A stretch of DNA of 64,000 nt from Catenulispora sp. EB89 (GTDB taxonomy: Bacteria > Actinomycetota > Actinomycetes > Streptomycetales > Catenulisporaceae): positions 496,001-560,000 of the forward strand of contig NZ_JBGCCU010000003.1 of NCBI RefSeq assembly GCF_041261445.1. Direction: 5' to 3'. Made by a program: the position numbers and the translations under genes. Shown one piece after another: positions 47,586 through 61,072 of this stretch (positions are counted from its first letter, which is position 1; each line of letters begins with the position of its first letter). Under the pieces are notes generated by a model. The model ran no database searches and had not been told where the DNA came from. It worked only from the letters and a program-made list of their open reading frames with translations.

Positions 47586-47602
47586 TGTGAGACGGCAGGT
47601 CC

Positions 47603-47636
47603 GCATCCCGGACGACAGTGGACGCGTCCGGGATGC
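47603..47636 (+). terminator. 12-bp hairpin after the surface-protein gene, upstream of leader peptide 1
   Basis: GCATCCCGGACG pairs perfectly with CGTCCGGGATGC around a 10-nt loop. It may end the upstream transcript, but it also lies in a block similar to the region before leader peptide 2 (shared GTCCGCATC and GGACGACAGTGGACG), so it may be regulatory. Confidence 0.6.
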
Positions 47637-47654
47637 GCTGCCAGGCTGATGACC

Positions 47655-47747
47655 ATGTCCCGTGCCGGAATCGCCCTCGTGAGTCGACGCCATGTCGACT
47701 ACGGACGTCTGTCCAGCATGGCCTGTACGGTCCGCACCGCGAACTGA
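47655..47747 (+). CDS. Cysteine-type leader peptide 1
   Basis: A 30-residue open frame: MSRAGIALVSRRHVDYGRL then SSMACTVRTAN. The RRHVD-GRLSSM-C pattern matches the small actinobacterial putative leader peptides that precede sulfur-assimilation genes. One Cys codon, TGT, occurs near the end; TGT is a minor codon in such GC-rich genomes. It ends 70 bp before sulfite reductase. Mycobacterial relatives act as cysteine-responsive attenuators; stalling at Cys when cysteine is scarce would raise expression. Mechanism here is inferred. Confidence 0.78.
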   Translation: MSRAGIALVSRRHVDYGRLSSMACTVRTAN

Positions 47748-47817
47748 CCGCGCTGCTCAGCGGCATCCCGCCGCCCTCCCACCGGCCGTATGACCCCTCG
47801 CTAAGGACACCTCCGCC

Positions 47818-49542
47818 ATGACCGCCACCCCGTCCACGCCTGCCCGCGTCGGCCGACCCCGCCAGCAGCGCGGCGAGGGCCAGTGGGCCAAAGGCTATTT
47901 CACCCCGCTGAACGGCAACGAACAGACCAAGAAGGACGATGACGGCCTGAACGTGCGGGCCCGCATCGAGAACATCTACGCCTACCGCGGGTTCGACGCC
48001 ATCGACGGCGGCGACCTGCGCGGCCGGTTCCGCTGGTGGGGCCTGTACACCCAGCGCCGCCCCGGCATCGACGGCGGCAAGACCGGCATCCTGGAGCCGG
48101 AGGACCTCGACGACAAGTACTTCATGCTCCGGGTGCGCATCGACGGCGGCCGGCTGAGCCTGGCCCAGCTGCGGGCCATCGCCGAGGTCTCGGAGAAGTA
48201 CGCGCGCGGCACCGCCGACGTCACCGACCGGCAGAACATCCAGCTGCACTGGGTGCGGATCGAGGACGTGCCGGCGATCTGGAAGACGCTGGAGGACGTC
48301 GGCCTGAGCACCGCCGAGGCCTGCGGCGACGTCCCGCGCGTGATCCTCGGCTCGCCGGTGGCCGGCATCTCCTCCGCCGAGATCATCGACGGCACCCCGG
48401 CGATCGAGGAGATCTCCCGGCGCTACATCGGCAACCCGGAGTTCTCCAACCTCCCGCGCAAGTTCAAGACCGCGATCAGCGGCCTGCAGGACGTGGTCCA
48501 CGAGATCAACGACATCTCGTTCGTCGGCGTGGTCCACCCCGAGCTCGGCCCGGGCTTCGACCTGTGGGTCGGCGGCGGCCTGTCGACGAACCCGCACTTC
48601 GCCAAGCGGCTCAACGCCTTCGTGCCGCTGGAGGAGGTCCCGGAGGTCTGGGCCGGCGTCTGCGGCATCTTCCGCGACTACGGCTACCGCCGCCTGCGCA
48701 GCCGCGCGCGCCTGAAGTTCCTGGTCGCGGACTGGGGCGCGGCGAAGTTCCGCGAGGTGCTGGAGACCGAGTACCTCAAGCGTCCGCTGACCGACGGCCC
48801 GGCCCCGGAGCCCGCTCCGGCCTACGAGCGCGACCACATCGGCGTGCACGTCCAGAAGGACGGCAACCACTACGTCGGCTTCGCCCCGCGCGTCGGCCGC
48901 GTCGACGGCGCGACCCTGGCCAAGATCGCGGACCTGGCCGAGGCCGCCGGCTCGGACCGGGTGCGCACCACCACCGAGCAGAAGCTGCTGATCCTGGACG
49001 TGGCCCAGGAGCGGGTCGAGGAGCTGGTCAGCGCCCTGGAGGCGCTGGACCTGCAGGTCCGCCCCTCGGTGTTCCGGCGCTCCACGATGGCCTGCACCGG
49101 CATCGAGTTCTGCAAGCTGGCGATCGTGGAGACCAAGAAGAGCGCGTCGAACCTGATCGACGAGCTCGAGCGTCGGCTGCCGGACTTCGACCAGCCGCTG
49201 ACCATCAACCTGAACGGTTGCCCCAACTCCTGCGCGCGCATCCAGGTCGCCGACATCGGCCTGAAGGGCCAGCTGGTCCTGGACGAGAACGGCGACCAGG
49301 TCGAGGGGTACCAGGTGCACCTCGGCGGCCACCTCGGTGCCCAGGTCAAGGAAGAAGCGGAGTCGAAGGGCACGGCGGGCGCGGACGGCGCCTTCGGCCG
49401 CAAGGTGCGCGGTCTGAAGGTGACGGCGGCGGCGCTGCCGGACTACGTCGAGCGTCTGGCGCGCCGGTTCCAGGAGCAGCGGACCGAGGACGAGACGTTC
49501 GCGCAGTGGACGGCGCGCGCCTCGGAGGCGGATCTGTCGTGA
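47818..49542 (+). CDS. sirA: Assimilatory sulfite reductase (ferredoxin), sirohaem/4Fe-4S
   Basis: 574 residues. Sirohaem-[4Fe-4S] ligands are Cys426, Cys432, Cys468 and Cys472 (TACTGIEFC and NGCPNSC). Tyr77 (GLYTQR) and Cys169 (AEACGD) are 92 residues apart, the same spacing as the cross-linked Tyr69-Cys161 pair in M. tuberculosis sulfite reductase, favouring sulfite over nitrite. Two ferrite-reductase repeats are complete. It reduces sulfite to sulfide with six electrons from ferredoxin. First enzyme of block 1, downstream of leader peptide 1. The sirohydrochlorin chelatase at 61.1 kb could supply its cofactor. Confidence 0.95.
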   Translation: MTATPSTPARVGRPRQQRGEGQWAKGYFTPLNGNEQTKKDDDGLNVRARIENIYAYRGFDAIDGGDLRGRFRWWGLYTQRRPGIDGGKTGILEPEDLDDKYFMLRVRIDGGRLSLAQLRAIAEVSEKYARGTADVTDRQNIQLHWVRIEDVPAIWKTLEDVGLSTAEACGDVPRVILGSPVAGISSAEIIDGTPAIEEISRRYIGNPEFSNLPRKFKTAISGLQDVVHEINDISFVGVVHPELGPGFDLWVGGGLSTNPHFAKRLNAFVPLEEVPEVWAGVCGIFRDYGYRRLRSRARLKFLVADWGAAKFREVLETEYLKRPLTDGPAPEPAPAYERDHIGVHVQKDGNHYVGFAPRVGRVDGATLAKIADLAEAAGSDRVRTTTEQKLLILDVAQERVEELVSALEALDLQVRPSVFRRSTMACTGIEFCKLAIVETKKSASNLIDELERRLPDFDQPLTINLNGCPNSCARIQVADIGLKGQLVLDENGDQVEGYQVHLGGHLGAQVKEEAESKGTAGADGAFGRKVRGLKVTAAALPDYVERLARRFQEQRTEDETFAQWTARASEADLS

Positions 49543-49579
49543 AGGTTCTCGGTGAGGCTCTCGTGAAGGCGGACCTGTC

Positions 49580-49762
49580 ATGAGCGAGCGCGCGGCCCCG
49601 GCGTACTGCCCGTACTGCGGCGACGAGGATCTGCGTCCTGAGGAGGGCGGCCACCGGCGGTGGTCGTGCCGCTCCTGCCGGCGGGTGTTCGAGGTCGCGT
49701 TCGTCGGCTTGCTGGCGCCCGGCGCCGGCCGGCCGGACGCATCGACGTCTGCTGCGGAATGA
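49580..49762 (+). CDS. Small zinc-ribbon protein linked to sulfite reductase
   Basis: 60 residues: YCPYCGDEDLRPEEGGHRRW then SCRSCRRVFEVAF. Two CxxC pairs 18-20 residues apart form a rubredoxin-like/zinc ribbon. Such tiny proteins commonly follow sulfite reductase in actinobacterial sulfur operons, from memory; function unknown. The 37-bp gap contains a partial direct repeat of the end of sirA (GTGAAGGCGGACCTGTCATGAG against GGAGGCGGATCTGTCGTGAAG). Confidence 0.8.
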   Translation: MSERAAPAYCPYCGDEDLRPEEGGHRRWSCRSCRRVFEVAFVGLLAPGAGRPDASTSAAE

Positions 49763-49832
49763 CAAGGGACAGGCAAGGGTTCCACCCCCGCACCGCAGGG
49801 TGAGCACCAAGGAAACCTTCGCTTAATCGTTT

Positions 49833-49862
49833 GAGGCCAACCCGTTGACCCGGGTTGGCCTC
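49833..49862 (+). terminator. 12-bp hairpin terminator after the sulfur block 1
   Basis: GAGGCCAACCCG pairs perfectly with CGGGTTGGCCTC over a 6-nt loop TTGACC. It is 70 bp past the zinc-ribbon gene. The loop is also the -35 of the next promoter. Confidence 0.75.
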
Positions 49863-49873
49863 ATTGCTAGTTT
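49845..49873 (+). promoter_or_regulatory. Promoter embedded in the terminator hairpin
   Basis: TTGACC (49845-49850), 17-nt spacer, TAGTTT (49868-49873). The -35 is the loop of the hairpin and the spacer is its right arm. Start near 49880 gives a leader of about 190 nt before the secreted-protein gene at 50072. Confidence 0.5.
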
Positions 49874-50071
49874 CCCCTTCGCAGACGATCTCAGGGACCG
49901 GGAGTCCCCGGGTTTCGTCGGGCGCTGACAGGCCCCATCGCATCGCACCACGGACGTTCACGGCGAGCGCGCGGTACCGCCGCGTGCCGATCCCGTGCGC
50001 CCGCTCACCAAACACGCCGCTGCGGCCAACCCCGGCCGGGCGGCGAGGTCCCAGCGAGAGGAAGCCACCAC

Positions 50072-51199
50072 ATGCTCCACACCCCCACGACCCGCCGTGG
50101 CAAGGCGCGTCTGGCCGCCACCGCCATCGGCGCCACCGCCGCGGTGCTCGCCGCGTTCGGCACCTCCGGGACGGCGCAGGCCGGCGCTCCGGCCCCGCAC
50201 CTGCGTACCGGCGTGTTGCCCACAGTCTCCGGCGCCGCAGCCATCCGCGCGCAGGCCGCCCACGAGGCCGGCCTCGCGAAGACGGCCGCGACCGGTCCGG
50301 AGACGCTGTCCTACGGCGGCGGCATAGACGGCATCGGTGTCATGGACCAGCACCCGAAGGTCTATGTCATCTTCTACGGGAGCCAGTGGGGCACCCAGAG
50401 CAAGGACGCCAACGGCAACCTGACCTTCTCCAACGACCCGCAGAAGGGCGCCGCGCCGGCGCAGATGCTCTTCAAGGGCGTGGGTACCGGCGGTGAGTCG
50501 TGGTCCGGGACCATGACGCAGTACTGCGACGGCTCGGGGGTCAAGACCGGCGCGACCAGCTGCCCGTCGGGCGCGCTGCACGTGCCCTACCCGACCGGCG
50601 GCGTGCTCGCCGGCGCCTGGTACGACAACTCCGCCAAGTCCCCGGCCGCCGCCACCGGCCACCAGCTCGGTGAGGAGGCGCTGAAGGCCGCGAAGCACTT
50701 CGGCAACACCACCGCGGCGAAGAACCGGGGCGCCTACTACGTGATCCTGTCCCCGCACGGCACCAACCCGGACAACTACCAGGGCCAGTACTGCGCCTGG
50801 CACGACTACAACGGCGACAGCACGCTGACCGGCGGCGCCGTCGCGTCCACCGTCGGCGACTTCGCCTTCTCCAACCAGCCCTACAACATGGACTCCGGCC
50901 AGGGCTGCGGCGTCAACTTCCTGAACTCCGGCAGCAAGGGCACCCTCGACGGCTGGACCATGACCCTGGGCCACGAGTACAGCGAGACCATCACCGACCA
51001 GAACCCGGCCGGCGGCTGGACCAACAACGTCGCGGGCTCGCCCTACCAGGGCCAGGAGAACGCCGACGAGTGCGCCTGGCTCAAGGGCGTGACCGGCGGC
51101 GCCGGCAACGTGAAGTTCGGCAACGGCACCTACACCTTCCAGGGCAGCTGGTCCAACGACACCAACGTCTGCGCGCTGACGCACGCGACGGTGAAGTGA
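50072..51199 (+). CDS. Secreted protein with HExxE motif, probable metalloprotein
   Basis: 375 residues. Signal peptide about 1-37 (ATAIGATAAVLAAFGTSGTAQA, two parts, Ala-Gln-Ala site). The mature part has HPKVYVIFYGSQW, a Cys-rich middle (YCDGSG, SCPSG, QYCAWHDY, GCGVNF) and GWTMTLGHEYSETITDQNP with GWTNN and ENADECAW. The H-E-x-x-E...TD..NP pattern and a later D/E-rich box recall exordium/PHI-1-like and related secreted proteins, and suggest a metal site. Six Cys residues may form disulfides. Function unknown; extracellular peptidase is only one possibility. Confidence 0.75.
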   Translation: MLHTPTTRRGKARLAATAIGATAAVLAAFGTSGTAQAGAPAPHLRTGVLPTVSGAAAIRAQAAHEAGLAKTAATGPETLSYGGGIDGIGVMDQHPKVYVIFYGSQWGTQSKDANGNLTFSNDPQKGAAPAQMLFKGVGTGGESWSGTMTQYCDGSGVKTGATSCPSGALHVPYPTGGVLAGAWYDNSAKSPAAATGHQLGEEALKAAKHFGNTTAAKNRGAYYVILSPHGTNPDNYQGQYCAWHDYNGDSTLTGGAVASTVGDFAFSNQPYNMDSGQGCGVNFLNSGSKGTLDGWTMTLGHEYSETITDQNPAGGWTNNVAGSPYQGQENADECAWLKGVTGGAGNVKFGNGTYTFQGSWSNDTNVCALTHATVK

Positions 51200-51263
51200 C
51201 CCTGTTCTAAGAAGGCTTCTCTAAGGAAGCTTCTCTAAGAAGTCTGCGGCTCCTGCCGAGTTC

Positions 51264-51965
51264 TCAGCCCTCTGGCTGGGGCTCGGCGGGGGTCCACAGG
51301 TCCTGACGCGGCGGCATCACCGAGGCGCCGGAAGCGCTCAGATTCTCCTGAGCCGGGTCCGACTGGGCCGGGAGCATGATCGTGGGCGCGTCGTCCGAAC
51401 CGACAGCCTCTTGGTGTGCGTTCTCGCCGTACACATCTACTCCATTCGCCCGCGCAGTAGTGACCAAACTCTGCCGCACTTGCGGCCAGGTCGCCATCAC
51501 CAGCGCCGCGAACACACCGGCCTGGAGAGTCTTCTCCCGTCCCAACGCACCGCGGTACACGACCTCGCTCACGACGTCGCCGCCGCGCGCCTTCGTCAGC
51601 CTCGGCGCCGCGAACTCCCCGAGCAGTGCCATCGCGTGGTCCACCACCCACTTGCGGCCCGGCACCGGCGGCAGCATGTGCCGGATCTTCTCCGCCTCGC
51701 GGGCCATCGCCGCGTCGGAGACCACCTCGACCACGTCCCGCACGATCACCCGGACGGCCTTGTCCCAGGGCACGTCCTCGCCGTCGAAGGCCATGTGGTC
51801 CGGTCCGACGGCGACCTCGCCGTAGCGGTCGAGCAGCCCCAGAGGTTTGAGGGCCAATGAGGGAAGGTCGGTGCGCCGCCGCAGATACGCCGCGAGGGAG
51901 ATCTCCCACAAAGCGCCGGCGGGCACGGACGGCATCGGGATCGTCGGCGTCTTCTGGTCCCCCAC
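51264..51965 (-). CDS. Conserved hypothetical actinobacterial protein
   Basis: 233 residues from a GTG at 51965 (VGDQKTPTIPMPSVP). The first part has AGALWEISLAAYLRRRTD and YGEVAVGPDHMAFDGEDVPWDKAVRV, resembling a PH-like beta sheet; the later part is helical (EKIRHMLPPVPGRKWVVDHAM) with a Pro/Gln-rich end. No signal peptide or membrane helix. No family recognised. Divergent from poxB-like gene 52 bp away. Downstream, between this gene and the secreted-protein gene, CTTCTCTAAG repeats occur near 51210-51240. Confidence 0.75.
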   Translation of the reverse strand: MGDQKTPTIPMPSVPAGALWEISLAAYLRRRTDLPSLALKPLGLLDRYGEVAVGPDHMAFDGEDVPWDKAVRVIVRDVVEVVSDAAMAREAEKIRHMLPPVPGRKWVVDHAMALLGEFAAPRLTKARGGDVVSEVVYRGALGREKTLQAGVFAALVMATWPQVRQSLVTTARANGVDVYGENAHQEAVGSDDAPTIMLPAQSDPAQENLSASGASVMPPRQDLWTPAEPQPEG

Positions 51966-52016
51966 GCGGCTCACTCTAGCGACCCCGGCTCTGGCCCCCT
52001 CCCCGAGACTGGCGGC

Positions 52017-53747
52017 ATGCCTACTGTCGCGGACGTGCTGTGGAAAATGCTCGCCGACGCCGGAGTGCGGCGCTGCTACGGGATCGTGGGCGACGCCCTG
52101 AACCCGGCGATCGACGCGCTGCGGCGGGCCGGCGGCATCGACTTCGTGCACGTCCGGCACGAGGAGTGGGGCGTGTTCGCGGCGGTCGCGGAGGCGAAGA
52201 TGTCCGGGCGTCCGGTCGCGGTGTGCGGGACTGCCGGCCCCGGCGTGAGCCACCTGATCAACGGTCTGATCGACGCCCGCAAGGAGGGCGCCCCGGTGAT
52301 CGCGATCGCCGGCGACGTCGAGACCGCCATCATGGACACCGACGGTCTGGAAGAGCTGAACCCTTATACGTTCTTCAATGTGGCGTCGCTCTATACGGGA
52401 CGCCTGGTAGACCCCAAACAGCTGCGCCCCATAGTCACCTCCGCCATCACCACCGCGCTGACCGAGCACGGCCCGACGGTGATCTCGTTGCCGGGCGACG
52501 TCGCAGCCGCGGACGCCCCGGATGTGGCGACACATATAACAGTTCCCAACACTGTCGCGGGCCCCGCACCCGATGTGGACATCGCCAAGCTCGCGGACAT
52601 CATCAACAGCGCGAAGACGGTCACCATCTTCGGCGGCGAGGGCTGCCAGAACGCCAGGGACCAGGTCCGTGCGCTCGCGGACAAGCTGAACGCACCGGTC
52701 GGCTACAGTTTCAAGGGCAAGCAGTGGCTGGAGTACGACAACCCCCACGCCGTCGGCATGACCGGACTGCTGGGCTACGGCGGCTGCTGGGAGGCGGCGA
52801 ACCACGCCGACGTACTCCTGATGTTGGGTACTGACTTCCCGTTCCCGCAGTTCCTCCCGCACAAGGGCGTGAAGGTGGTCCAGGTGGACCGGGACGGACG
52901 CCGCCTGGGCCGCCGGGTACCGCTGGCGCACGGACTGGTCGGCGATGTCGGAGCCACCCTGGACCGACTACTGCCGCAGGTGACTCCTAAGTCCGACGAC
53001 GCCTTCCTGCGGAAGTGTCTAAAGAAGACGGAAGAGTTCGACAAACAACTACAGCACTACGTCGAACACGGTCCGGCGCTCAAGCAGATCCGACCCGAGT
53101 ACCTGACAGCGACCCTCGACAGACTCGCCCCGGAGGAGGCGGTGTTCACCGTCGACACCGGTACCGCGTGCATCTGGGCCGCGCACTATCTGCACTTCGG
53201 CCCTAAGCGCCACATGTTCGGCAGCCTCACGTGGGCCTCCATGGCCAGCGCCTCCCCCAACGCCTTCGGCGCCAAGATGGCCTTCCCGGACCGCGCGGCG
53301 ATCGCGCTGTGCGGGGACGGCGGCTTCACGATGCTCGGCCTCGGCGACCTCCTCACGGAGGTACAGCGCAAGGCCGAGATCGTCCACGTGATCCTGAACA
53401 ACGGCAAGCTCGACTTCGTCTGGATCGAGATGCAGGAAGCCGGGCTCACCCCGTGGGGCGTCGACTTCCAGAACCCGGACTTCGCGAAGGTCGGCGAGGC
53501 GATGGGTGCCAGGGGCATCCGGATCGAGCGCCCCGCCGACCTGGAGCAGGGTCTGAAGGAAGCGTTGAGCCACCGCGGCGGACCCGTGGTGGTCGACGTG
53601 GTCGTCGATCCCTATGCCTTGGCCCTACCGGCGCACACTCCGGCGGCCACCGTTAAGGGCTTCACGCTCAGCGTCGCCAAGCAGGCGTTGACCGGGCACC
53701 TCGGAGACGTCGTCAAGGAGGCGACGCATAACGTGCGCCTGCTTTAG
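52017..53747 (+). CDS. Thiamine-diphosphate enzyme, pyruvate dehydrogenase (quinone)-like
   Basis: 576 residues. Pyruvate oxidase/POX-type ThDP enzyme: catalytic Glu in HVRHEEWGVFAAVAEA, FAD-binding middle domain (GEGCQNARDQV, LLMLGTDFPFPQFLP) and the ThDP motif CGDGGFTMLGLGDLLTEVQ... ending LNNGKLDFVW. Best match is PoxB: oxidises pyruvate to acetate and CO2 with electrons to quinone. The acetolactate synthase alternative is less likely, given LPHKGVKVVQVD and the absence of a regulatory partner. No typical C-terminal lipid-binding helix is obvious. Confidence 0.85.
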   Translation: MPTVADVLWKMLADAGVRRCYGIVGDALNPAIDALRRAGGIDFVHVRHEEWGVFAAVAEAKMSGRPVAVCGTAGPGVSHLINGLIDARKEGAPVIAIAGDVETAIMDTDGLEELNPYTFFNVASLYTGRLVDPKQLRPIVTSAITTALTEHGPTVISLPGDVAAADAPDVATHITVPNTVAGPAPDVDIAKLADIINSAKTVTIFGGEGCQNARDQVRALADKLNAPVGYSFKGKQWLEYDNPHAVGMTGLLGYGGCWEAANHADVLLMLGTDFPFPQFLPHKGVKVVQVDRDGRRLGRRVPLAHGLVGDVGATLDRLLPQVTPKSDDAFLRKCLKKTEEFDKQLQHYVEHGPALKQIRPEYLTATLDRLAPEEAVFTVDTGTACIWAAHYLHFGPKRHMFGSLTWASMASASPNAFGAKMAFPDRAAIALCGDGGFTMLGLGDLLTEVQRKAEIVHVILNNGKLDFVWIEMQEAGLTPWGVDFQNPDFAKVGEAMGARGIRIERPADLEQGLKEALSHRGGPVVVDVVVDPYALALPAHTPAATVKGFTLSVAKQALTGHLGDVVKEATHNVRLL

Positions 53748-53768
53748 AGCTCCGCACGTCCATAGAGC

Positions 53769-54617
53769 TCAGATCGCCTCCGCGAGCCGGTCCACCTGGC
53801 CCGGGTCGCGGCCGTAGCAGTAGAGCATCACCTCGTCGACGCCGAGATCCGCATACTGCGCGATGGTCTGCCGGATCGACGCAGGAGCGGTGAGCATCCC
53901 CTCGACCATCCGATCGGCCCTGCCGCCGGTGAACCGGTAGTACGCGGCCATGGCCGTCCGCGCGTCGTCGAGGACGTCCTCAGGACCGAGCGCGACGTTC
54001 GCCTGAGCCACGATCCGCGGCTCTCCGGACCGGCCGGCCTCGTCCCAACCGCGGCGCACCGTCTCGATCAGCGGCCCGATCCACGACGGTGCGGCGGCGG
54101 CGAGGAAGCCGTCGCCGAAGCGGGCCACGCGAGCCAGCGCCGCCGGACGGAACCCGCCGAACAGCACCTCGGGACCGTTCGCGCGGTGCGGACGCGGACC
54201 GATCGGTCCGACGGTGTCGCTGTAGGGGGCGCCGGACCAGACGCGCCGCATGACGCCCATCTGCCGGTCGAGCAGGCGTCCCCGGGTGTGCAGGTCCGTG
54301 CCGGCCGCCTCGTGGTCGTCCTCGCGACCGCCGACGCCCAGACCCAGGACGAAACGGCCGCCGCTGATCCGGTCCAGGGTGGCGGCTTGCTTGGCCAACA
54401 GGACGGGCTCGCGCAGCGGGGCCAGCAGCACCTCGGTCTGCAGGCGTACGCGGCTGGTCGCACCGGCCAGGACGGCCAGGGCGACCAGAGGCTCCGGATT
54501 GTCGTAGACAAGCCGGTCGAGCAGGCCGAGTGTGGTGAACGGTCCGGTGTCCGCGGCGCGGGCCCAGTCGAGCAGCAGCTCGGGGGCGCTGACGGGCAGA
54601 CCGATTCCGACTTCCAA
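53769..54617 (-). CDS. LLM-class F420-dependent oxidoreductase
   Basis: 282 residues from a TTG at 54617. That start is supported by GGAGG seven bases upstream. Luciferase-like barrel: MEVGIGLPVSAPELLLDWA (M for TTG), TTLGLLDRLVYDNPEPLVALA, GGRFVLGLGVGGREDD and EVLFGGFRPAALARV. F420 is the likely cofactor. Substrate unknown. It lies between poxB and the second sulfur block, opposite to both. Confidence 0.87.
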   Translation of the reverse strand: MEVGIGLPVSAPELLLDWARAADTGPFTTLGLLDRLVYDNPEPLVALAVLAGATSRVRLQTEVLLAPLREPVLLAKQAATLDRISGGRFVLGLGVGGREDDHEAAGTDLHTRGRLLDRQMGVMRRVWSGAPYSDTVGPIGPRPHRANGPEVLFGGFRPAALARVARFGDGFLAAAAPSWIGPLIETVRRGWDEAGRSGEPRIVAQANVALGPEDVLDDARTAMAAYYRFTGGRADRMVEGMLTAPASIRQTIAQYADLGVDEVMLYCYGRDPGQVDRLAEAI

Positions 54618-54796
54618 GGGAAAACCTCCGTGAGGGCACGACGAATCAGTGCCGCCCTCTCCAGGACTTCGACGAGGCGAAGCGTAGGGCTCCCGTTCTG
54701 CGGCGTTCGTGCTGAGGAGCTCCCTGTCGGAGTATTCGGCAGCCTAAAGCGCGATCCGGGGCCGGAACAAACCCATTTCGGCACCGCGAAGTGGCG

Positions 54797-54862
54797 TGAG
54801 ACACATAGTCCGCATCATGGACGACAGTGGACGACCCGCGGACCGCGTGCGACTCTCTAGTC
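54797..54862 (+). promoter_or_regulatory. Shared upstream element before leader peptide 2
   Basis: TGAGAC at 54797 is followed by AGTCCGCATC and GGACGACAGTGGACG. The same order occurs at 47588 before leader peptide 1 (TGAGAC, GGTCCGCATC, GGACGACAGTGGACG), ending 66 and 67 nt before the two start codons. A CATAGT at 54804-54809 may be a -10 box; no -35 is clear. The shared block probably holds the promoter and a regulatory hairpin. Confidence 0.55.
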
Positions 54863-54949
54863 ATGTCTCGTGCTGGAATCGCGCTCGTCGGTCGGCGTCA
54901 CGTCGACTTCGGACGGCTGTCCAGCATGGTCTGTATGCCGGTCCAGTAG
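54863..54949 (+). CDS. Cysteine-type leader peptide 2
   Basis: A 28-residue open frame: MSRAGIALVGRRHVDFGRL then SSMVCMPVQ. It matches leader peptide 1 at 22 of the first 24 positions or nearly so. The Cys codon is again TGT, near the end. It precedes cysH by 155 bp. Family and mechanism as for leader 1: cysteine-responsive attenuation is the expected role, by analogy with actinobacterial leader peptides before sulfur operons. Confidence 0.78.
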   Translation: MSRAGIALVGRRHVDFGRLSSMVCMPVQ

Positions 54950-55104
54950 ACCTCGCCCGCGATCTGCCGTTCAAGATCTTCCAGGGCCCACGGTCCGCCG
55001 GCACTCCCCCCACGCCGTCCGTGTGACGCCGCTTCCGCGCGGCTCCCGGCGCGTCGGGCGTCCGGCACGTCCGTGTGCCCGCCACTGTAAGGGGAAGCCC
55101 CGAA

Positions 55105-55836
55105 ATGTCAGCGGACACCACGCTCGCGTCGGTCGACCCGGCCTCGACGGGACGTACCGACCTGCGGGCGCTGGCCGAGCAGGCCAACGCGGAACTCGAA
55201 CACGCCCCGGCCGGGCGGATCGTCCAGTGGGCCCACGCCACCTTCGGCGCGGACCTGGTCGTCGCCTCGTCCATGGCCGACACCCACCTGGTGCACCTGG
55301 CGTCCACCGCGGCCCCGGGCATCGACGTCGCCTTCCTGGACACCGGCTACCACTTCGCGGAGACCATCGGCACGCGCGACGCGGTGGCCGAGGTCTACCC
55401 GGTGCGGCTGCTGAACATCACGCCGCTGCAGACCGTGGCCGAGCAGGACGCCGAGTTCGGCCCGCGGCTGCACGAGCGCGACCCCGACAAGTGTTGCGCG
55501 ATGCGCAAGGTCGAGCCGCTGGAGCGCGCGCTCAAGCCCTACGTCGCCTGGATCAACGGCATGCGCCGCGAGGAGTCCCCGACCCGCGCGGACATCCCGG
55601 TGATCGGCTACGACGCCAAGCGCGACATGGTCAAGATCTCGCCGCTGGCCGCCTGGACCCAGGACGACCTCGACGCCTACATCACCGACAACGGAGTCCT
55701 GACCAACCCCCTGTTCCTCGAGGGCTACACCTCGATCGGCTGCGAGCCCTGCACGCGCAAGCCCCTGCCGGGCGAGGACCCGCGGGCCGGGCGCTGGGCC
55801 GGCAACGCCAAGACCGAATGCGGACTGCACACCTGA
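55105..55836 (+). CDS. cysH: Adenylyl-sulfate (APS) reductase, 4Fe-4S type
   Basis: 243 residues from an ATG at 55105 with AAGGGG upstream. Cluster Cys are Cys130-Cys131 (KCCAMRK) and Cys213/Cys216 (GCEPCTRK); the catalytic Cys239 is in ECGLHT at the end. The CC...CxxC cluster marks APS reductase rather than PAPS reductase. ATP-pyrophosphatase-like core: VVASSMADTHLVHLAS. It reduces APS to sulfite with thioredoxin. First gene of block 2. cysD follows after 1 bp, so no APS kinase is inserted, in keeping with APS as the substrate. Confidence 0.94.
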   Translation: MSADTTLASVDPASTGRTDLRALAEQANAELEHAPAGRIVQWAHATFGADLVVASSMADTHLVHLASTAAPGIDVAFLDTGYHFAETIGTRDAVAEVYPVRLLNITPLQTVAEQDAEFGPRLHERDPDKCCAMRKVEPLERALKPYVAWINGMRREESPTRADIPVIGYDAKRDMVKISPLAAWTQDDLDAYITDNGVLTNPLFLEGYTSIGCEPCTRKPLPGEDPRAGRWAGNAKTECGLHT

Positions 55837-55837
55837 C

Positions 55838-56761
55838 ATGAGCACCCTGACCCACGACGAGACCGCCCCGGCGCACGACCATCTCCGGACGCTGGAGGCC
55901 GAGGCGGTCCACATCATCCGCGAGGTGGCAGCCGAGTTCGAGCGGCCGGTGCTGTTGTTCAGCGGCGGCAAGGACTCGATCGTCATGCTGCACCTGGCGC
56001 TGAAGGCGTTCGCGCCGGCGCCGGTGCCGTTCGGACTGCTGCACGTGGACACCGGCCACAACTTCCCCGAGGTGCTGGACGTGCGCGACCGCACCGTCGC
56101 CGAGCACGGTCTGCAGCTGTTCGTCGCGCACGTGCAGGACTACATCGACGACGGCCGCCTGGTCGAGCGCCCCGACGGCACCCGCAATCCGCTCCAGACA
56201 GTGCCGCTGGTGGACGCGATCCAATCCCACAAGTTCGACGCCGTCTTCGGAGGCGGTCGCCGCGACGAGGAGAAGGCCCGCGCGAAAGAGCGGGTCTTCT
56301 CGCTGCGTGACGACTTCGGGCAGTGGGACCCCAAGCGCCAGCGCCCGGAGCTGTGGCGGCTGTACAACGGCCGGCACCGCCCCGGGGAGCACGTGCGGGT
56401 GTTCCCGCTGTCCAACTGGACCGAACTGGATGTGTGGCAGTACATCGCCGAGCAGGAGATCGAGCTGCCGGAGATCTACTACGCGCACGAGCGCCAGGTG
56501 TTCGCCCGCGGCGGCATGTGGCTGTCCCCCGGCGACTGGGGCGGTCCGCGCGAGGGCGAGACGGTGCAGACCCGCATCGTGCGCTACCGCACCGTCGGGG
56601 ACATGTCGTGCACCGGCGCCGTCGACTCCGACGCCTCCGACGTCGCCGCGGTCATCGAAGAGATCACCGCCTCCCGGATCACCGAGCGCGGGTCTTCCCG
56701 CGCGGACGACCGCCTTTCCGAGGCCGCCATGGAGGACCGCAAGCGAGAGGGGTACTTCTAA
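55838..56761 (+). CDS. cysD: Sulfate adenylyltransferase, small subunit
   Basis: 307 residues. N-type ATP pyrophosphatase: PVLLFSGGKDSIVMLHLALKAF (SGGKDS P-loop), HVDTGHNFPEVLDVRD, AVFGGGRRDEEKARAKERV and NWTELDVWQYIAEQEIELP. It forms APS from sulfate and ATP together with CysN. The stop shares a base with the cysN start (TAATG), so the subunits are coupled. Confidence 0.96.
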   Translation: MSTLTHDETAPAHDHLRTLEAEAVHIIREVAAEFERPVLLFSGGKDSIVMLHLALKAFAPAPVPFGLLHVDTGHNFPEVLDVRDRTVAEHGLQLFVAHVQDYIDDGRLVERPDGTRNPLQTVPLVDAIQSHKFDAVFGGGRRDEEKARAKERVFSLRDDFGQWDPKRQRPELWRLYNGRHRPGEHVRVFPLSNWTELDVWQYIAEQEIELPEIYYAHERQVFARGGMWLSPGDWGGPREGETVQTRIVRYRTVGDMSCTGAVDSDASDVAAVIEEITASRITERGSSRADDRLSEAAMEDRKREGYF

Positions 56762-58122
56762 TGACTGTGCTGCTGGACGCGCCGACCGCGAAGGACACCC
56801 AGGTCGCAGGACTGCTGCGGCTGGCCACCGCCGGCTCGGTGGACGACGGGAAGTCGACCCTGGTGGGCCGGCTGCTCTACGACACCAAGTCGGTGCTGGC
56901 CGACCAGTACGAGGCGGTGGAGCGCACCTCGCGCAACCGCGGACTGGAGCAGGCCGACCTGGCGCTGCTCACCGACGGCCTGCGCTCGGAGCGCGAGCAG
57001 GGCATCACCATCGACGTCGCCTACCGCTACTTCGCCACGCCGCGCCGGCGGTTCATCCTGGCCGACACCCCCGGGCACGTGCAGTACACCCGCAACATGG
57101 TCACCGGCGCCTCCACCGCCGAGCTCGCGGTGATCCTGGTCGACGCCCGCAAGGGGCTGGCCGAGCAGACCCGCCGCCACACCGCCGTCTCCGCCCTCCT
57201 GCGGGTGCCGCGGGTGCTGCTGGCGGTGAACAAGATGGACCTGGTCGACTTCGACAAGGACCGGTTCGCCGAGATCGAGGCCGACTTCGCCGCCTACGCC
57301 ACGGCGCTGGGCATCGAGCACCACGCCGCGCTCCCGGTCTCCGCGCTGCGCGGCGACAACGTCGTGGAGCCCTCGGCGGATCTGGCCTGGTTCGAGGGCC
57401 CGACCCTGCTGGAGTTCCTGGAGAACGTGCCGGTGCAGACCGAGCGGCGCCCGGCCGGCCGGTTCCCGGTGCAGTACGTGATCCGGCACCAGAGCGCCGA
57501 CTACCGCGGCTACGCCGGCACCATCGCCTCCGGACACCTGGAGGTCGGCGACCCGATCGTGGTGCTGCCCTCGGGCCAGCGCTCGACCATCGCCGCCATA
57601 GACCTGCTGGGCCACCCGGCCGAGCGCGTCACCGCCGGCCAGGCCGCGACCCTGCTACTGGCCGACGAGCTGGACGTCTCGCGCGGCGACCTGATCGCCC
57701 CGGCCGAGGCCGCCCCGGCCGCTGTGCAGGACGTGGTGGCGACCGTGTGCCACCTTTCGGAGAAGCCGCTGAAGGTCGGCGACCGGGTGCTGCTGAAGCA
57801 CACCACCCGCACCGTCAAGGCGATCGTCAAGGAGATCTCCGCCAAGCTGGACATCTCCGACCCGCTGGCCGCCGCGTCCTCGACCGCCGCCGACGCCGCC
57901 AACGCCGAGGCCGACGAGTTCGCCTGGGACGACGACGCCCCCACCACGCACACCCTGCACGCCAACGACATCGGCCGCGTGGTCCTGCGCACCGCCTCGC
58001 CGATCCTGCTGGAGCCCTACGCCGCGGACCGCGAGACCGGCTCGTTCCTGCTGATCGACCCCGCCAGCGGCGACACCCTCACCGCCGGCATGTCCGGGGA
58101 CCCGCTGGGGGTCTTCTCGTGA
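56761..58122 (+). CDS. cysN: Sulfate adenylyltransferase, GTPase subunit
   Basis: 453 residues. GTPase motifs: GSVDDGKSTLVGRLL (G1), REQGITIDVAYRYF (G2), ADTPGHVQYTRNM (G3), NKMDLVDF (G4). Beta-barrel domains 2 and 3 follow, then a Glu/Asp/Ala-rich insert near 355-400 between barrels, unusual in length. Its GTP hydrolysis drives APS formation by CysD. No fused APS kinase domain (CysC) at the C-terminus, unlike mycobacterial CysNC, again pointing to APS as end product. 43 bp before the ABC transporter. Confidence 0.95.
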   Translation: MTVLLDAPTAKDTQVAGLLRLATAGSVDDGKSTLVGRLLYDTKSVLADQYEAVERTSRNRGLEQADLALLTDGLRSEREQGITIDVAYRYFATPRRRFILADTPGHVQYTRNMVTGASTAELAVILVDARKGLAEQTRRHTAVSALLRVPRVLLAVNKMDLVDFDKDRFAEIEADFAAYATALGIEHHAALPVSALRGDNVVEPSADLAWFEGPTLLEFLENVPVQTERRPAGRFPVQYVIRHQSADYRGYAGTIASGHLEVGDPIVVLPSGQRSTIAAIDLLGHPAERVTAGQAATLLLADELDVSRGDLIAPAEAAPAAVQDVVATVCHLSEKPLKVGDRVLLKHTTRTVKAIVKEISAKLDISDPLAAASSTAADAANAEADEFAWDDDAPTTHTLHANDIGRVVLRTASPILLEPYAADRETGSFLLIDPASGDTLTAGMSGDPLGVFS

Positions 58123-58165: not shown

Positions 58166-59374
58166 ATGTCGGACCGCCGGGCAGCACCTCAGGCCCCTGT
58201 TCCGACATCGAAGATCCCCGTAGTCCCGCAGTCCCTGGAGCGTACGTTGATACGAAGGGCTTTCTCCGCCGTCGCCGCGACCGTCGCGGCCGGCTGGATG
58301 CTCGTGTCGCTGGTGATCGTCATCGCCGCGTACGTCTCCACCACGAACCACTCCTCCGGGCCGGCCACGGCCTCCTCCACCACCGCCGCGGGCAGCACGT
58401 CCACGGCGGCCGGGGAGCTGCGGCTGGGCTACTTCGCGAACGTCACGCACGCCACGGCCCTGGTCGGGGTCGCACACGGCGACTTCGCCAAGGCCCTGGG
58501 CGCCACCAAGCTGACCACCCAGATCTACAACGCCGGCCCCGCGGAGATGACCGCGCTGCTCGGCGGCCAGCTGGACGCCGCCTACGTCGGGCCCTCCTCG
58601 GCCCTGTCGGCCTTCGCCCAGTCGCACGGCCAGGCGCTGAAGATCGTCGCCGGCGCCACCAGCGGCGGCGCGGAGCTGGTGGTGCGGCCCGGGATCAGCA
58701 GCGCGGCCGACCTCAAGGGCAAGACCCTCGCGACTCCGCAGAAGGGCAACACCCAGGACGTCGCCCTGCGCGCCTGGCTGAAGCAGAACGGCCTGACCGC
58801 CAACGCGGACGGCACCGGCGACGTGTCGGTGAACCCGCAGGACAACGCCGCCACCCTGGACCAGTTCAAGGCCGGGCACATCGACGGCGCCTGGCTGCCG
58901 GAGCCCTGGGCCTCGCGCATGGTCCTGGAGGCCGGGGCCAAGGTGCTCGTCGACGAGCGCACCCTGTGGCCCGGCGGGCAGTTCGCGACCACCAACCTGG
59001 TGGTGTCCAGCACCTTCCTCGCCGCGCACCCGGACACCGTCAAGGCCCTGATCGACGGCCAGATCGCGGCCAACCAGTGGATCGCCTCGGCTCCCGCCGA
59101 CGCCCAGAAGCTGGTCAACGACCAGCTGAAGAAGCTCACCGGCAAGGCCCTCACCGCCGCCGAGATCCAGCGCGCGTTCAGCGAGCAGACGCCGACCGAC
59201 GACCCGCTGGCCGCCTCGCTCCAGACCTCGATGGATCACGCCGTGTCCACCGGGCTGCTCAAGAAGACAGACCTGCACGGCATCTTCGACCTGACGCTGC
59301 TGAACACCGAGCTGGCCAAGGACGGCCGGCCCGCGGTGTCCGACGCCGGGCTGGCCGAACCGTCCACCAAGTAG
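58166..59374 (+). CDS. ABC transporter substrate-binding protein, sulfonate/sulfate-ester type
   Basis: 402 residues. One hydrophobic N-terminal helix at about 32-57 with no lipobox Cys, so it is held by an uncleaved anchor or released; most actinobacterial relatives I know are lipoproteins. The binding domain: LRLGYFANVTHATALVGVA, GPAEMTALLGGQLDAAYVGPSS, GAWLPEPWASRMV. This is the SsuA/NrtA/TauA group. With cysH-cysDN and the SsuBC-like genes it probably brings in organosulfonate. An internal TTG near 58247 would leave a short anchor. Confidence 0.88.
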   Translation: MSDRRAAPQAPVPTSKIPVVPQSLERTLIRRAFSAVAATVAAGWMLVSLVIVIAAYVSTTNHSSGPATASSTTAAGSTSTAAGELRLGYFANVTHATALVGVAHGDFAKALGATKLTTQIYNAGPAEMTALLGGQLDAAYVGPSSALSAFAQSHGQALKIVAGATSGGAELVVRPGISSAADLKGKTLATPQKGNTQDVALRAWLKQNGLTANADGTGDVSVNPQDNAATLDQFKAGHIDGAWLPEPWASRMVLEAGAKVLVDERTLWPGGQFATTNLVVSSTFLAAHPDTVKALIDGQIAANQWIASAPADAQKLVNDQLKKLTGKALTAAEIQRAFSEQTPTDDPLAASLQTSMDHAVSTGLLKKTDLHGIFDLTLLNTELAKDGRPAVSDAGLAEPSTK

Positions 59375-59400
59375 CGCCAGAGACTTAAGGGGAGACCGCC

Positions 59401-60201
59401 ATGACCGCCGCCATTGCCGAAACCACCACGGACGCCATCGCCTCGGGCCACTCCCCCGAGTCCCAGCCGGCCGTCCGGCTGACCAAGGTCGGCAAGACCT
59501 TCCGGGGCGGGGCCCCGGTGCTCGACGGCATCGACCTGACCGTCGCGCCGGGCGAGTTCGTGTGCCTGCTCGGCGCTTCGGGCTGCGGCAAGTCCACGCT
59601 GCTGAACCTGGTCGCCGACCTGGACGCGCCGAGCGCCGGCACCGTCGAGGTGCCCTCCGGCCGCGCCGCGCTGATGTTCCAGGAGTCCGCGCTGTTCCCG
59701 TGGCTGACCGCCGGGGAGAACATCGACCTGGCGCTGCGGCTGCGCGGCCTGTCCGGCCGCCGCGACCGCCGCGCCGAGACCGAGCGGCTGCTGGACCTGG
59801 TCCGGCTGCGCGGCGCCTACGACAAGCGTCCACACCAGCTCTCCGGCGGCATGCGGCAGCGCGTCGCGCTGGCCCGCGCGCTGGCCCAGGACAGCCCGGT
59901 GCTGCTGATGGACGAGCCGTTCGCCGCGCTGGACGCCATCACCCGCGACGTGCTGCACGAGGAGCTCATCCGGCTGTGGGAGGCCACCGGGCTCGCGGTG
60001 CTGTTCGTCACGCACAACGTGCGCGAGGCGGTGCGCCTGGGCCAGCGGGTCGTGCTGCTGTCCTCGCGTCCCGGCCGGGTGGCGCGGGAGTGGCGCGTGG
60101 ACATCCCGCAGCCGCGGCGCATCGAGGACAAGGCGGTGGCGGACCTGTCGGTTGAGATCACCGATGACCTGCGCAAGGAGATCAGCCGCCATGGCCGCTG
60201 A
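59401..60201 (+). CDS. ssuB: ABC transporter ATP-binding protein (SsuB-type)
   Basis: 266 residues. Walker A GASGCGKST, Q-loop MFQESALFPWLTAGEN, signature LSGGMRQRVALARAL, Walker B LLMDEPFAALDAITRD and switch His in FVTHNVREAV. The PFAALD/ALFPWL pattern is that of nitrate/sulfonate/taurine importers. It starts 26 bp after the binding-protein gene and overlaps the permease by 11 bp. Confidence 0.93.
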   Translation: MTAAIAETTTDAIASGHSPESQPAVRLTKVGKTFRGGAPVLDGIDLTVAPGEFVCLLGASGCGKSTLLNLVADLDAPSAGTVEVPSGRAALMFQESALFPWLTAGENIDLALRLRGLSGRRDRRAETERLLDLVRLRGAYDKRPHQLSGGMRQRVALARALAQDSPVLLMDEPFAALDAITRDVLHEELIRLWEATGLAVLFVTHNVREAVRLGQRVVLLSSRPGRVAREWRVDIPQPRRIEDKAVADLSVEITDDLRKEISRHGR

Positions 60202-61072
60202 CACGGACACCGGCGGTCGGCCCGGCGACACTCTCGCACACATCGAAGCCGGGCTTGACGCACTGGAAACATCGGCGGAACCGGAGTCCAGCAGACTCAG
60301 GAGCGTGGCCGCCTCCGTCATCCCGCCGATCGTCGCCGTCGCACTGATCCTCGCCGTCTGGCAGGTCCTCTACGCGGCCAAGATCTGGCCGGACTGGAAG
60401 CTGCCCGGACCCTCTGAGGTCTTCTCCTCGCTCAAGGACACCTTCTCCGGCGGCGACGCCTGGGGCGCGGTCGGCCACAGCATCGCGCACGGCGCCGTCG
60501 GCTTCGGGGCCTCGGTCGCCATCGGCACCCCGCTGGGCATCCTGGTCAGCCGGTTCAAGACCATCCGCTCCGGCATCGGCCCGATCCTGTCCGGCCTGCA
60601 GTCGCTGCCCTCGGTCGCCTGGGTCCCGCCGGCCCTGATGTTCTTCGGACCGACCCCGGCCATGCTCTACACCGTCGTCCTGCTCGGCGCGGTGCCCTCC
60701 ATCTCCGTCGGCGTCGTCTCCGGACTGGACCAGGTACCGCCGCTGTACCTGCGCGTCGGCCACAACATCGGCGCCCGCGGCCTGGCCTCGGTACGGCACG
60801 TCCTGCTGCCGGCCGCGCTGCCCGGCTACCTCGCGGGGCTGCGGCAGGGCTGGGCCTTCGCCTGGCGCTCACTGCTGGCCTCGGAGATCATCGTGCAGTC
60901 CGCGAACCTCGGACACTCGCTGGGCTTCCTGCTGAAGAACTCGCAGGACGCCAACGACATGTCCGGGGCGTTCGCGGCGATCGTGCTCATCCTGGCCGTC
61001 GGGGTGGCGGTCAACCAGCTGCTCTTCGCGCCGCTGGAGCGGCGTGTGCTCAAGGCGAGGGGGTTGGCGTGA
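60191..61072 (+). CDS. ssuC: ABC transporter permease (SsuC-type)
   Basis: 293 residues from an ATG within the end of ssuB. A cytoplasmic N-terminal tail (about 45 residues), then about six membrane helices with the EAA-like loop PPLYLRVGHNIGARGLASVRHVLLPAALP. It pairs with the preceding ATPase and binding protein in sulfonate or sulfate-ester uptake. Its stop overlaps the chelatase start (GTGA). Confidence 0.92.
   Translation: MAADTDTGGRPGDTLAHIEAGLDALETSAEPESSRLRSVAASVIPPIVAVALILAVWQVLYAAKIWPDWKLPGPSEVFSSLKDTFSGGDAWGAVGHSIAHGAVGFGASVAIGTPLGILVSRFKTIRSGIGPILSGLQSLPSVAWVPPALMFFGPTPAMLYTVVLLGAVPSISVGVVSGLDQVPPLYLRVGHNIGARGLASVRHVLLPAALPGYLAGLRQGWAFAWRSLLASEIIVQSANLGHSLGFLLKNSQDANDMSGAFAAIVLILAVGVAVNQLLFAPLERRVLKARGLA

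What the first reader, a model, noticed from the sequence alone, without database searches (positions are those of the whole stretch)
47655..54949. Two near-identical cysteine leader peptides, each heading a sulfur block
Seen: the frames at 47655 and 54863 share MSRAGIALV-RRHVD-GRLSSM-C, both use TGT for Cys, and both have the same upstream TGAGAC / GTCCGCATC / GGACGACAGTGGACG order at 66-67 nt. Known: such peptides precede actinobacterial sulfur genes and cysteine-responsive attenuation is shown in mycobacteria. Inference: a duplicated sensor co-ordinates two separate transcripts.
Basis: partly seen in the sequence, partly recalled or inferred. Interest (0 to 1): 0.8.

Follow-up and report, generated by a model that had tools for sequence, protein, structure and literature searches.

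The report
Twin cysteine-sensing leaders for sulfur genes
Two tiny genes in front of sulfur-assimilation genes look like real, conserved cysteine-sensor leaders of a kind already known in actinobacteria, and the leaders of this kind examined keep one particular, normally avoided cysteine codon at one fixed place, which points to a testable sensing mechanism.

Summary
Two 28-30 codon frames (47655, 54863) share 21 residues and the same upstream DNA, and head sirA and cysH-cysD-cysN-transporter. Both sites occur in 10 of 10 genomes of the genus searched; 78 of 80 sirA loci of relatives carry such a leader.

The upstream triplet is best read as promoter DNA: an NdgR-type operator (GTCC-N7-GGAC), a -35 and a -10 placed so that transcription would start at the leader's ATG. 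Streptomyces coelicolor NdgR is reported to bind at this operon (PMC4340878).

They are not a unique pair: this genome has about 12 such leaders. The pair probably arose by duplication of a promoter-plus-leader cassette.

New: the conserved cysteine, nine codons after the Asp of R-R-x-V-D, is UGU in 174 of 175 distinct leaders, polycysteine ones included (the other has Ser), while other NNY codons in the same leaders end in U 15% of the time.

Cysteine-responsive attenuation remains inferred. The RNA pairing that would transmit it is weakly supported: significant in 7 of 11 genus sirA rows, but not in the window's copies, the genus cysH set or Streptomycetales. A generic sigma-70 scan does not flag the proposed promoters.

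The parts
47588..47593 (+). TGAGAC, part of a GTCTC/GAGAC-like element upstream of leader 1 (function unknown)
   Evidence: a loosely related inverted repeat in 46 of 77 Streptomycetales sirA promoters
47599..47613 (+). NdgR-type operator GTCCGCATCCCGGAC, leader 1
   Evidence: NdgR ChIP-seq motif table and target list, PMC4340878
47619..47624 (+). -35-like TGGACG, leader 1
   Evidence: not flagged by the generic scan
47642..47647 (+). -10-like CAGGCT, 17 nt after the -35 and 7 nt before the ATG
   Evidence: not flagged by the generic scan
47655..47747 (+). leader peptide 1 (30 aa), predicted leaderless
47724..47726 (+). key UGU Cys codon (D+9) of leader 1
47784..47792 (+). GGCCGTATG, complementary (with wobbles) to TGTACGGTC (47724-47732); candidate long-range pairing just before the sirA ribosome-binding site
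   Evidence: conserved in the genus; window copy p 0.42
47803..47807 (+). AAGGA, ribosome-binding site of sirA
   Evidence: sequence
47818..49542 (+). sirA, sulfite/nitrite reductase family
   Evidence: below the equivalog cut-offs; 80 homologous loci
49580..49762 (+). 60-aa Cys-rich ORF, in the position of SCO6101
   Evidence: position compared with PMC4340878 Table 2
49832..49863 (+). strong hairpin, probable end of the sirA unit
   Evidence: z -6.12
54797..54802 (+). TGAGAC upstream of leader 2
54808..54822 (+). NdgR-type operator GTCCGCATCATGGAC, leader 2
54828..54833 (+). -35-like TGGACG, leader 2
   Evidence: not flagged by the generic scan
54851..54856 (+). -10-like GACTCT, 17 nt after the -35 and 6 nt before the ATG
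   Evidence: not flagged by the generic scan
54863..54949 (+). leader peptide 2 (28 aa), predicted leaderless
54932..54934 (+). key UGU Cys codon (D+9) of leader 2
55062..55067 (+). CCGGCA, complementary to TGCCGG (54936-54941) of leader 2; candidate pairing
   Evidence: not above shuffles; in the window copy the best duplex uses another CCGGCA further upstream
55090..55099 (+). AGGGGAAGCC, cysH ribosome-binding site inside a possible GGGG/CCCC hairpin
   Evidence: sequence conserved; hairpin by eye, not in the consensus fold
55105..55836 (+). cysH (APS/PAPS reductase)
55838..56761 (+). cysD
56761..58122 (+). cysN
58166..61830 (+). SsuA-type binding protein, ABC ATPase, ABC permease, CbiX-family protein

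Best explanation
Each frame is the first gene of a leaderless mRNA. An NdgR-type operator and a -35/-10 promoter place the transcription start at or very near the leader's own ATG. Ribosomes read R-R-H-V-D and, nine codons later, a single UGU Cys codon. When Cys-tRNA is scarce the ribosome pauses there, covering the Cys-codon RNA and keeping it from folding onto the region upstream of the sirA or cysH ribosome-binding site (and/or shielding the C-rich gap from Rho), so the sulfur genes are expressed. With cysteine plentiful the ribosome finishes and leaves, and expression falls. The promoter-operator-leader cassette was duplicated in this genus so that sirA and the cysH operon, adjacent in Streptomyces, keep the same double control after being split. 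Shown here: the leaders, their conservation, the promoter layout in relatives, the duplication (moderate support), the invariant UGU. Inferred: NdgR binding here, the start site, stalling, and the downstream switch.
For: 78 of 80 sirA loci carry the leader 57-308 nt upstream (the misses are L051, which has one before cysH instead, and L081, with only 143 nt of upstream DNA held). In 77 Streptomycetales promoters GTCC-N7-GGAY starts at -56 in 69, TGGACN stands at -36 to -31 in 75, A at -11 in 76 and T at -7 in 77; anti-SD energy median -1.8 kcal/mol before the leader against -7.3 before sirA (the sirA value takes the best of the in-frame starts). PMC4340878 lists GTCCACATTTTGGAT for the NdgR peak at 6,701,783-6,704,095 and SCO6102 as a direct target; the same 15 bases stand in the S. 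tendae promoter (L104). An IclR-family homologue divergent from leuC is in this genome. Key Cys codon UGU in 174 of 175 distinct leaders against 99 of 652 other NNY codons ending in U; 55 of 55 in leaders placed by profile alone; 76 of 76 against 1.2% of 415 Cys codons in the sirA genes. Leaderless Cys ORFs before nirA/Msmeg_4527 (passages) and cysteine-responsive attenuation in M. smegmatis (passages in citing papers). Genus sirA and cysH cassettes 0.75 identical against 0.65-0.68 to the other groups; promoters alone, aligned, 0.61 against 0.50-0.57.
Against: No transcript, start-site or ribosome data. The generic sigma-70 scan finds no promoter at either leader and no terminator in the gaps. 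The leader/RBS-region pairing is not above shuffles in the window's own copies (p 0.42 and 0.77), in any of 9 genus cysH copies (window's included) or in any of 77 Streptomycetales copies; only 7 of 11 genus sirA rows have p<0.05, two of them the same sequence. Both peptides score below NCBIfam's curated cut-offs (18.3 and 20.4 against 27; 24.1 and 28.5 against 45). One relative (G023, L149) has Ser (AGT) for the only Cys of leader 1. The clade joining the two cassettes has support 0.805, and compared without gaps their promoters are only 0.27 identical because of a 1-nt shift. Exact GTCC-N7-GGAC boxes are no more frequent in the window than chance (3 found, 3.26 expected), and none lies in the 2.8 kb around the NdgR candidate.
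Confidence: 0.7

Rival explanations
1. The leader is a coupling device only: its translation delivers ribosomes and hides the C-rich gap, and cysteine control comes entirely from NdgR and the promoter, not from the Cys codon.
For: NdgR box at a fixed place in relatives and reported direct NdgR binding at this operon; one relative lacks the Cys codon; pairing evidence is weak.
Against: It gives no reason for a Cys codon that is UGU in 174 of 174 leaders with Cys at D+9, nor for the same leader type before other sulfur genes.
Confidence: 0.15
2. Transcription attenuation by Rho: a paused ribosome protects the C-rich gap; a finished one lets Rho terminate before sirA.
For: The gap is C-rich and G-poor in the 77 of 78 loci examined (median skew 0.25, against 0.07 in the 100 nt before the leader; median upper-tail share of windows 1.4%); window sirA gap 0.33 (2.3% of windows). 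Seliverstov et al. 2005 raised this, as a weak prediction, for mycobacterial cys operons (passages).
Against: The window's cysH gap is ordinary (0.17, 8.7% of windows); the share of windows reaches 22% in one locus; no conserved rut motif was tested.
Confidence: 0.3
3. The shared DNA and frames are an RNA element (riboswitch-like) in which the peptide is incidental.
For: Synonymous sites are constrained in the Streptomycetales sirA leader (TTG 73/76, GGA 74/76, AGT 67/68) and a leader hairpin is predicted.
Against: No Rfam match at gathering score other than two tRNAs; the shared upstream block lies before the predicted start site; the codons next to the UGU vary between leader families.
Confidence: 0.07

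Closest known systems
Mycobacterial leaderless polycysteine short ORFs (Ms4527A, Ms5788A; Canestrari et al. 2020)
   Same: Position before nirA/sirA-type and other cysteine genes, predicted leaderless, R-R-x-V-D core, Cys codon(s) near the stop; NCBIfam NF042936 (Ms4527A) is the better-scoring of the two models hit.
   Different: One Cys instead of a run; below NF042936's curated cut-off; NdgR-type box. The paper itself could not be read; its content is taken from passages in citing papers and partly recalled.
NCBIfam NF042934 'putative leader peptide'
   Same: Same core; orthologues from Streptomyces, Yinghuangia, Actinocrinis and a third genus of the family, and five other leaders of this genome, reach its cut-off (9 of 10 peptides given).
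   Different: The two window peptides score 18.3 and 20.4 against 27; the third MSR-type copy of this genome also fails (19.0).
NdgR regulon of Streptomyces coelicolor (IclR family; PMC4340878)
   Same: GTCC-N7-GGAC-type motif; the homologous operon is a listed direct target.
   Different: Binding in this genus not tested; the word 'leader' does not occur in that paper's main text.
Candidate cys-operon leader peptides of Seliverstov et al. 2005 (PMC1262725)
   Same: Leader ORF before cys genes without an obvious terminator (passages).
   Different: Runs of Cys codons; reported for Mycobacterium, Propionibacterium acnes and Bifidobacterium longum.
uORFC-8-2 motif before cysS in Rhodobacterales (PMC8632094)
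   Same: Cys-codon leader thought to act by ribosome-mediated attenuation (passages).
   Different: Two tandem Cys codons, mostly UGC, with an intrinsic terminator; another phylum.

Membership tests
NCBIfam NF042934 putative leader peptide | score at or above the curated cut-off (27 bits) | tested here: not met
   18.3 and 20.4 bits; 9 of 10 related peptides given pass
NCBIfam NF042936 Ms4527A Cys-rich leader | score at or above the curated cut-off (45 bits) | tested here: not met
   24.1 and 28.5 bits; none of 10 related peptides passes, best 43.1
Actinobacterial Cys leader peptides (by position and core) | short ORF before a sulfur or cysteine gene, R-R-x-V-D core and Cys near the stop, conserved across species | tested here: met
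Leaderless cysteine-responsive attenuators | mRNA starts at the leader's start codon | not testable with these tools
   promoter layout in relatives and lack of SD agree; generic scan does not; no start-site data
Leaderless cysteine-responsive attenuators | downstream expression falls with cysteine, depending on the Cys codon(s) | not testable with these tools
   needs reporter assays
Leaderless cysteine-responsive attenuators | leader RNA can pair with the region of the downstream ribosome-binding site | tested here: inconclusive
   genus sirA 7 of 11 rows p<0.05; window copies, 9 of 9 genus cysH rows and 77 of 77 Streptomycetales loci not
NdgR regulon | 15-bp GTCC-N7-GGAC box at the promoter | tested here: met
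   both window promoters; GTCC-N7-GGAY in 69 of 77 relatives
NdgR regulon | NdgR present in the genome | tested here: inconclusive
   IclR-family protein divergent from leuC, as ndgR-leuC in S. coelicolor, with 84-86% matches in 5 of 5 same-order genomes outside the family; no named NdgR sequence was compared

The most novel reading that the evidence does not exclude
The family is not a classical 'count the regulatory codons' attenuator but an arrest-peptide-type sensor: the nascent R-R-x-V-D-x-x-R segment, sitting in the upper exit tunnel, sets up a ribosome whose A-site then meets one wobble-decoded Cys codon, UGU, exactly nine codons after the Asp. UGU, not UGC, is required because its slower G-U decoding sets the sensitivity to Cys-tRNA. 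One Cys codon thus suffices, and the rule holds across the class, polycysteine leaders included.
Probability: 0.35. Interest if true: 0.8.

Novelty: new variant of a known kind. Interest (0 to 1): 0.55.

Why it matters
Cys leaders are spread through Actinomycetes (an Ms5788A-type match in 145 of 246 genomes of the class); NCBIfam's general model for them is named only 'putative leader peptide'. A position-fixed UGU in genomes that otherwise prefer UGC, at constant spacing from a conserved peptide motif, is a sharp clue to how one codon can sense cysteine, and a single synonymous change tests it. The NdgR-box layout would join two control layers of sulfur assimilation that the papers I saw describe separately, and the duplicated cassette suggests how an operon can be split while keeping both.

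Tried and rejected
Rejected or unsupported: (1) riboswitch or known RNA family: only two tRNAs in the window at gathering scores. (2) Upstream inverted repeat as an RNA hairpin: it lies before the predicted start site and matches an operator motif. (3) Intrinsic terminator in the gaps: none found by the scan. (4) Simple sequestration of the sirA ribosome-binding site by CTGTCC in the leader: not kept across the genus (CTGTCC, CTTTCC, CTCTCC against similar AAGGAC sites). (5) Long-range pairing as a general proof: RNAalifold shows it on 43 loci, but duplex energies reach p<0.05 in none of 77 Streptomycetales loci. (6) UGU explained by local pairing: neighbouring codons vary between families, though in the genus sirA leader UGU does lie in a candidate helix. 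(7) Literature on UGU in these leaders or on a Cys leader of this kind in Streptomyces: I saw none in the listings or in the passages opened; Canestrari et al. 2020 is not held, so prior mention cannot be excluded. The S. lividans reannotation lists eight leader peptides, none assigned to cysteine (passages).

Limits of the counts. Collection patterns: searches used patterns that require Cys 8-10 codons after the Asp (8-9) and either require or favour Arg at D-4 and D+3, so the presence of Cys and Arg there is partly by construction; none of them favours TGT over TGC. The genus set was collected by upstream DNA without a Cys requirement (that is how the Ser variant appeared), and 55 leaders placed by profile coordinates alone gave TGT at D+9 in 55. 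Rows dropped: L152 left out (same leader as L050, probably the same genome; it is); L150 gave no readable leader; L050 left out of the 77-promoter set and the Streptomycetales duplex test; one search used 77 of 78 loci (L060 too short); one search used 43 of 78 loci (short gaps, L050 included) and removed gap-rich columns; one search used 7 of 77 Streptomycetales loci (5 as 'Strep', 2 Yinghuangia); one search merged sequences identical from six codons before the Asp to the stop. Ms5788A-type codon numbers come from the 30 loci returned (29 distinct) of 145 matching genomes. The family set of 55 comes from this genome and four others of the 14 searched (G003, G013, G015, G017, G019 in part). 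Two 'main TGC' cases were a wrong choice of Cys by my pattern in CC pairs; the D+9 codon there is TGT. Downstream genes of the other leaders are the nearest GC3-rich ORFs of 150 aa or more on the leader's strand, some several hundred nt away, so a small gene between may be missed.
Full report
What is there. Two short frames, 47655-47747 and 54863-54949, encode MSRAGIALVSRRHVDYGRLSSMACTVRTAN and MSRAGIALVGRRHVDFGRLSSMVCMPVQ (21 shared columns). The first ends 70 nt before sirA; the second ends 155 nt before cysH, followed by cysD, cysN, an SsuA-type ABC system and a CbiX-family protein. After sirA come a 60-aa Cys-rich ORF and a strong hairpin at 49832-49863, so two units are likely. The genes between include a thiamine-diphosphate enzyme and, on the other strand, a luciferase-like monooxygenase.

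Upstream block. TGAGAC, GTCCGCATC and GGACGACAGTGGACG occur together twice in the window, nowhere else there; the 26-base core is found at no other place in the genome at up to 3 mismatches, and twice in each of 10 of 10 genomes of the genus searched. One of these, G003, has the length I recall for Catenulispora acidiphila; the nearest named SirA locus is from a 'Catenulisporales bacterium' (87%). In 77 Streptomycetales sirA promoters a like layout recurs: GTCC-N7-GGAY starting at -56 in 69, TGGACT at -36 in 67 (TGGACN in 75), and in the -12 to -7 hexamer A at -11 in 76 and T at -7 in 77. There is little Shine-Dalgarno before the leader (median -1.8, range -5.9 to 0.9, against -7.3 before the best sirA start). 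I read this as operator, -35, -10 and a start at the ATG. A generic sigma-70 scan does not flag these sites. The S. lividans reannotation reports TAnnnT and nTGACn promoter motifs and 17% leaderless transcripts (abstract and passages, PMC8079986).

The operator. PMC4340878 (section 5 and passages) gives NdgR's ChIP-seq motif as a 15-bp imperfect palindrome and lists GTCCACATTTTGGAT for the peak at 6,701,783-6,704,095 and SCO6102 as a direct target; that this peak is the SCO6102 one is my inference. The same 15 bases stand at this place in the S. tendae promoter (L104). This genome has an IclR-family protein divergent from leuC with one near-full match of 84% identity or more in each of the 14 other genomes searched: about 100% in 9 of the genus, 84-86% in 5 others. 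It was not compared with a named NdgR, and no exact box lies in the 2.8 kb around it. Exact GTCC-N7-GGAC by itself is at chance level in the window; the fixed position in relatives carries the argument.

Spread. SirA loci: 80 fetched (best 80 of 583), 78 with the leader. In Actinocrinis (L051; L190 looks like the same contig) the MSR-type leader stands before cysH instead. In a third genus of the family (L187, L188) there is one before cysH and a different one before sirA; L189 shows the same two leaders but its contig ends before cysH. Family-wide search: 14 of 14 genomes have 1-15 leader matches at E up to 0.05, 11 in this one, which also has an Ms5788A-type match. Of the 11, four stand before clear sulfur or cysteine genes (sirA, cysH, an SsuA-type protein, a cysteine synthase), four before plausible ones (two NMT1-type proteins, two NtaA/DmoA-type monooxygenases, one of these just under its cut-off), and three before genes of unclear relation (two ABC permeases, a protein with a pro-kumamolisin domain); the twelfth was not looked at. 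A cassette tree puts the genus sirA and cysH leaders together (support 0.805) with the ssuA copy next (0.851); identity 0.75 against 0.65-0.68 to the other groups. Promoters alone are 0.61 identical when aligned, against 0.50-0.57, but 0.27 without gaps because of a 1-nt shift.

The codon. In 76 equal-length sirA leaders Cys24 is TGT in 76, while TGT is 1.2% of 415 Cys codons in the sirA genes of the 78 loci. A class-wide pattern that allows TGT or TGC gave 22 matches in 18 of 118 genomes, all TGT; its control gave none. In 29 distinct Ms5788A-type leaders, mycobacterial-looking polycysteine ones included, the codon nine after the Asp is TGT in 29, while Cys at +2, +7 and +8 is TGC in 54 of 63; from +10 on the polycysteine runs mix both. 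Pooled: 174 of 175 distinct leaders have TGT at D+9; the exception is AGT (Ser) in leader 1 of G023. At the other positions listed, NNY codons of Cys, His, Asp, Phe, Tyr, Asn and Ile end in T in 99 of 652 (sums of the rows); in the window's genes 5 of 47 Cys codons are TGT. That Cys and the two Arg (D-4, D+3) are nearly always present is partly due to the collection patterns; which Cys codon is used is not. In 55 leaders placed by profile coordinates alone, TGT is at D+9 in 55, Arg at D-4 in 55 and at D+3 in 54. The stop lies 1-9 codons after the key Cys, so in the shortest leaders a ribosome at the Cys codon and one at the stop cover nearly the same RNA: dwell time rather than position should carry the signal (inference). 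For contrast, a Cys leader motif of Rhodobacterales uses mostly UGC (passage, PMC8632094).

RNA. Streptomycetales leaders are predicted to fold into a long hairpin with a second one around the Cys codon (68 distinct sequences), and a pairing of the Cys-codon region with CAGAGCCGC before the sirA ribosome-binding site is predicted in most of 43 loci. In the genus a complementary GGCCGTACGA-like block lies just before the sirA ribosome-binding site. Against dinucleotide shuffles the best duplex is significant in 7 of 11 genus sirA rows (two identical), but not in the window copies (p 0.42, 0.77), in none of 9 genus cysH rows and in none of 77 Streptomycetales loci. The gap is C-rich. The downstream switch is therefore open: translational, as citing papers report for M. 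smegmatis, or Rho-dependent.

Synonymous constraint elsewhere. In the Streptomycetales sirA leader TTG (73/76), GGA (74/76) and AGT (67/68) are kept although rare in sirA; this may reflect RNA folding of that leader. I did not test it as a rule in the other leader families. The UGU is what all sets examined share.

Verdict. Observation confirmed; interpretation partly supported. The leaders belong by position and core to the actinobacterial Cys-leader kind, although the two peptides miss NCBIfam's cut-offs. New, as far as my searches go, are the operator-promoter-leader layout across genera, the cassette duplication, and above all the fixed UGU at D+9, for which an arrest-peptide-like, wobble-codon sensor is the boldest reading left open.

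Noticed in passing
L149 (genome G023), leader 1: The only Cys codon of leader 1 is AGT (Ser) while the rest of the leader and promoter is nearly identical to the window's: a natural test of whether the Cys codon matters. Assembly error not excluded.
   Followed up: partly
55105-56761: No cysC between cysH and cysD (1 base apart), whereas PMC4340878 lists SCO6099 cysC between them in S. coelicolor; CysH has CC and CxxC motifs that I recall as typical of APS reductases.
   Followed up: no
47748-47810 and homologous gaps: C-rich, G-poor stretch between leader and sirA in the 77 of 78 loci examined (median skew 0.25), suited to Rho binding.
   Followed up: partly
L047 (G000:C9:50351-50404): A Cys-rich leader (..WSCSCCR) stands before a protein with a pro-kumamolisin activation domain, not an evident sulfur gene.
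   Followed up: no
G000:C8:239784-240389 and G000:C8:240707: An IclR-family gene lies beside another Cys leader that precedes an NMT1-type protein; an IclR-family match also lies beside the leader at G017:C20:179071.
   Followed up: no
55090-55104: The cysH ribosome-binding site lies in an AGGGGAAGCCCC stretch, well conserved in 9 genus copies, that could form its own hairpin.
   Followed up: partly
L048 (G000:C29:139520-140554): Two divergent Cys leaders about 1 kb apart, before a monooxygenase and an ABC permease; by eye some leaders (here and at C8) have an SD before the start and would not be leaderless.
   Followed up: no
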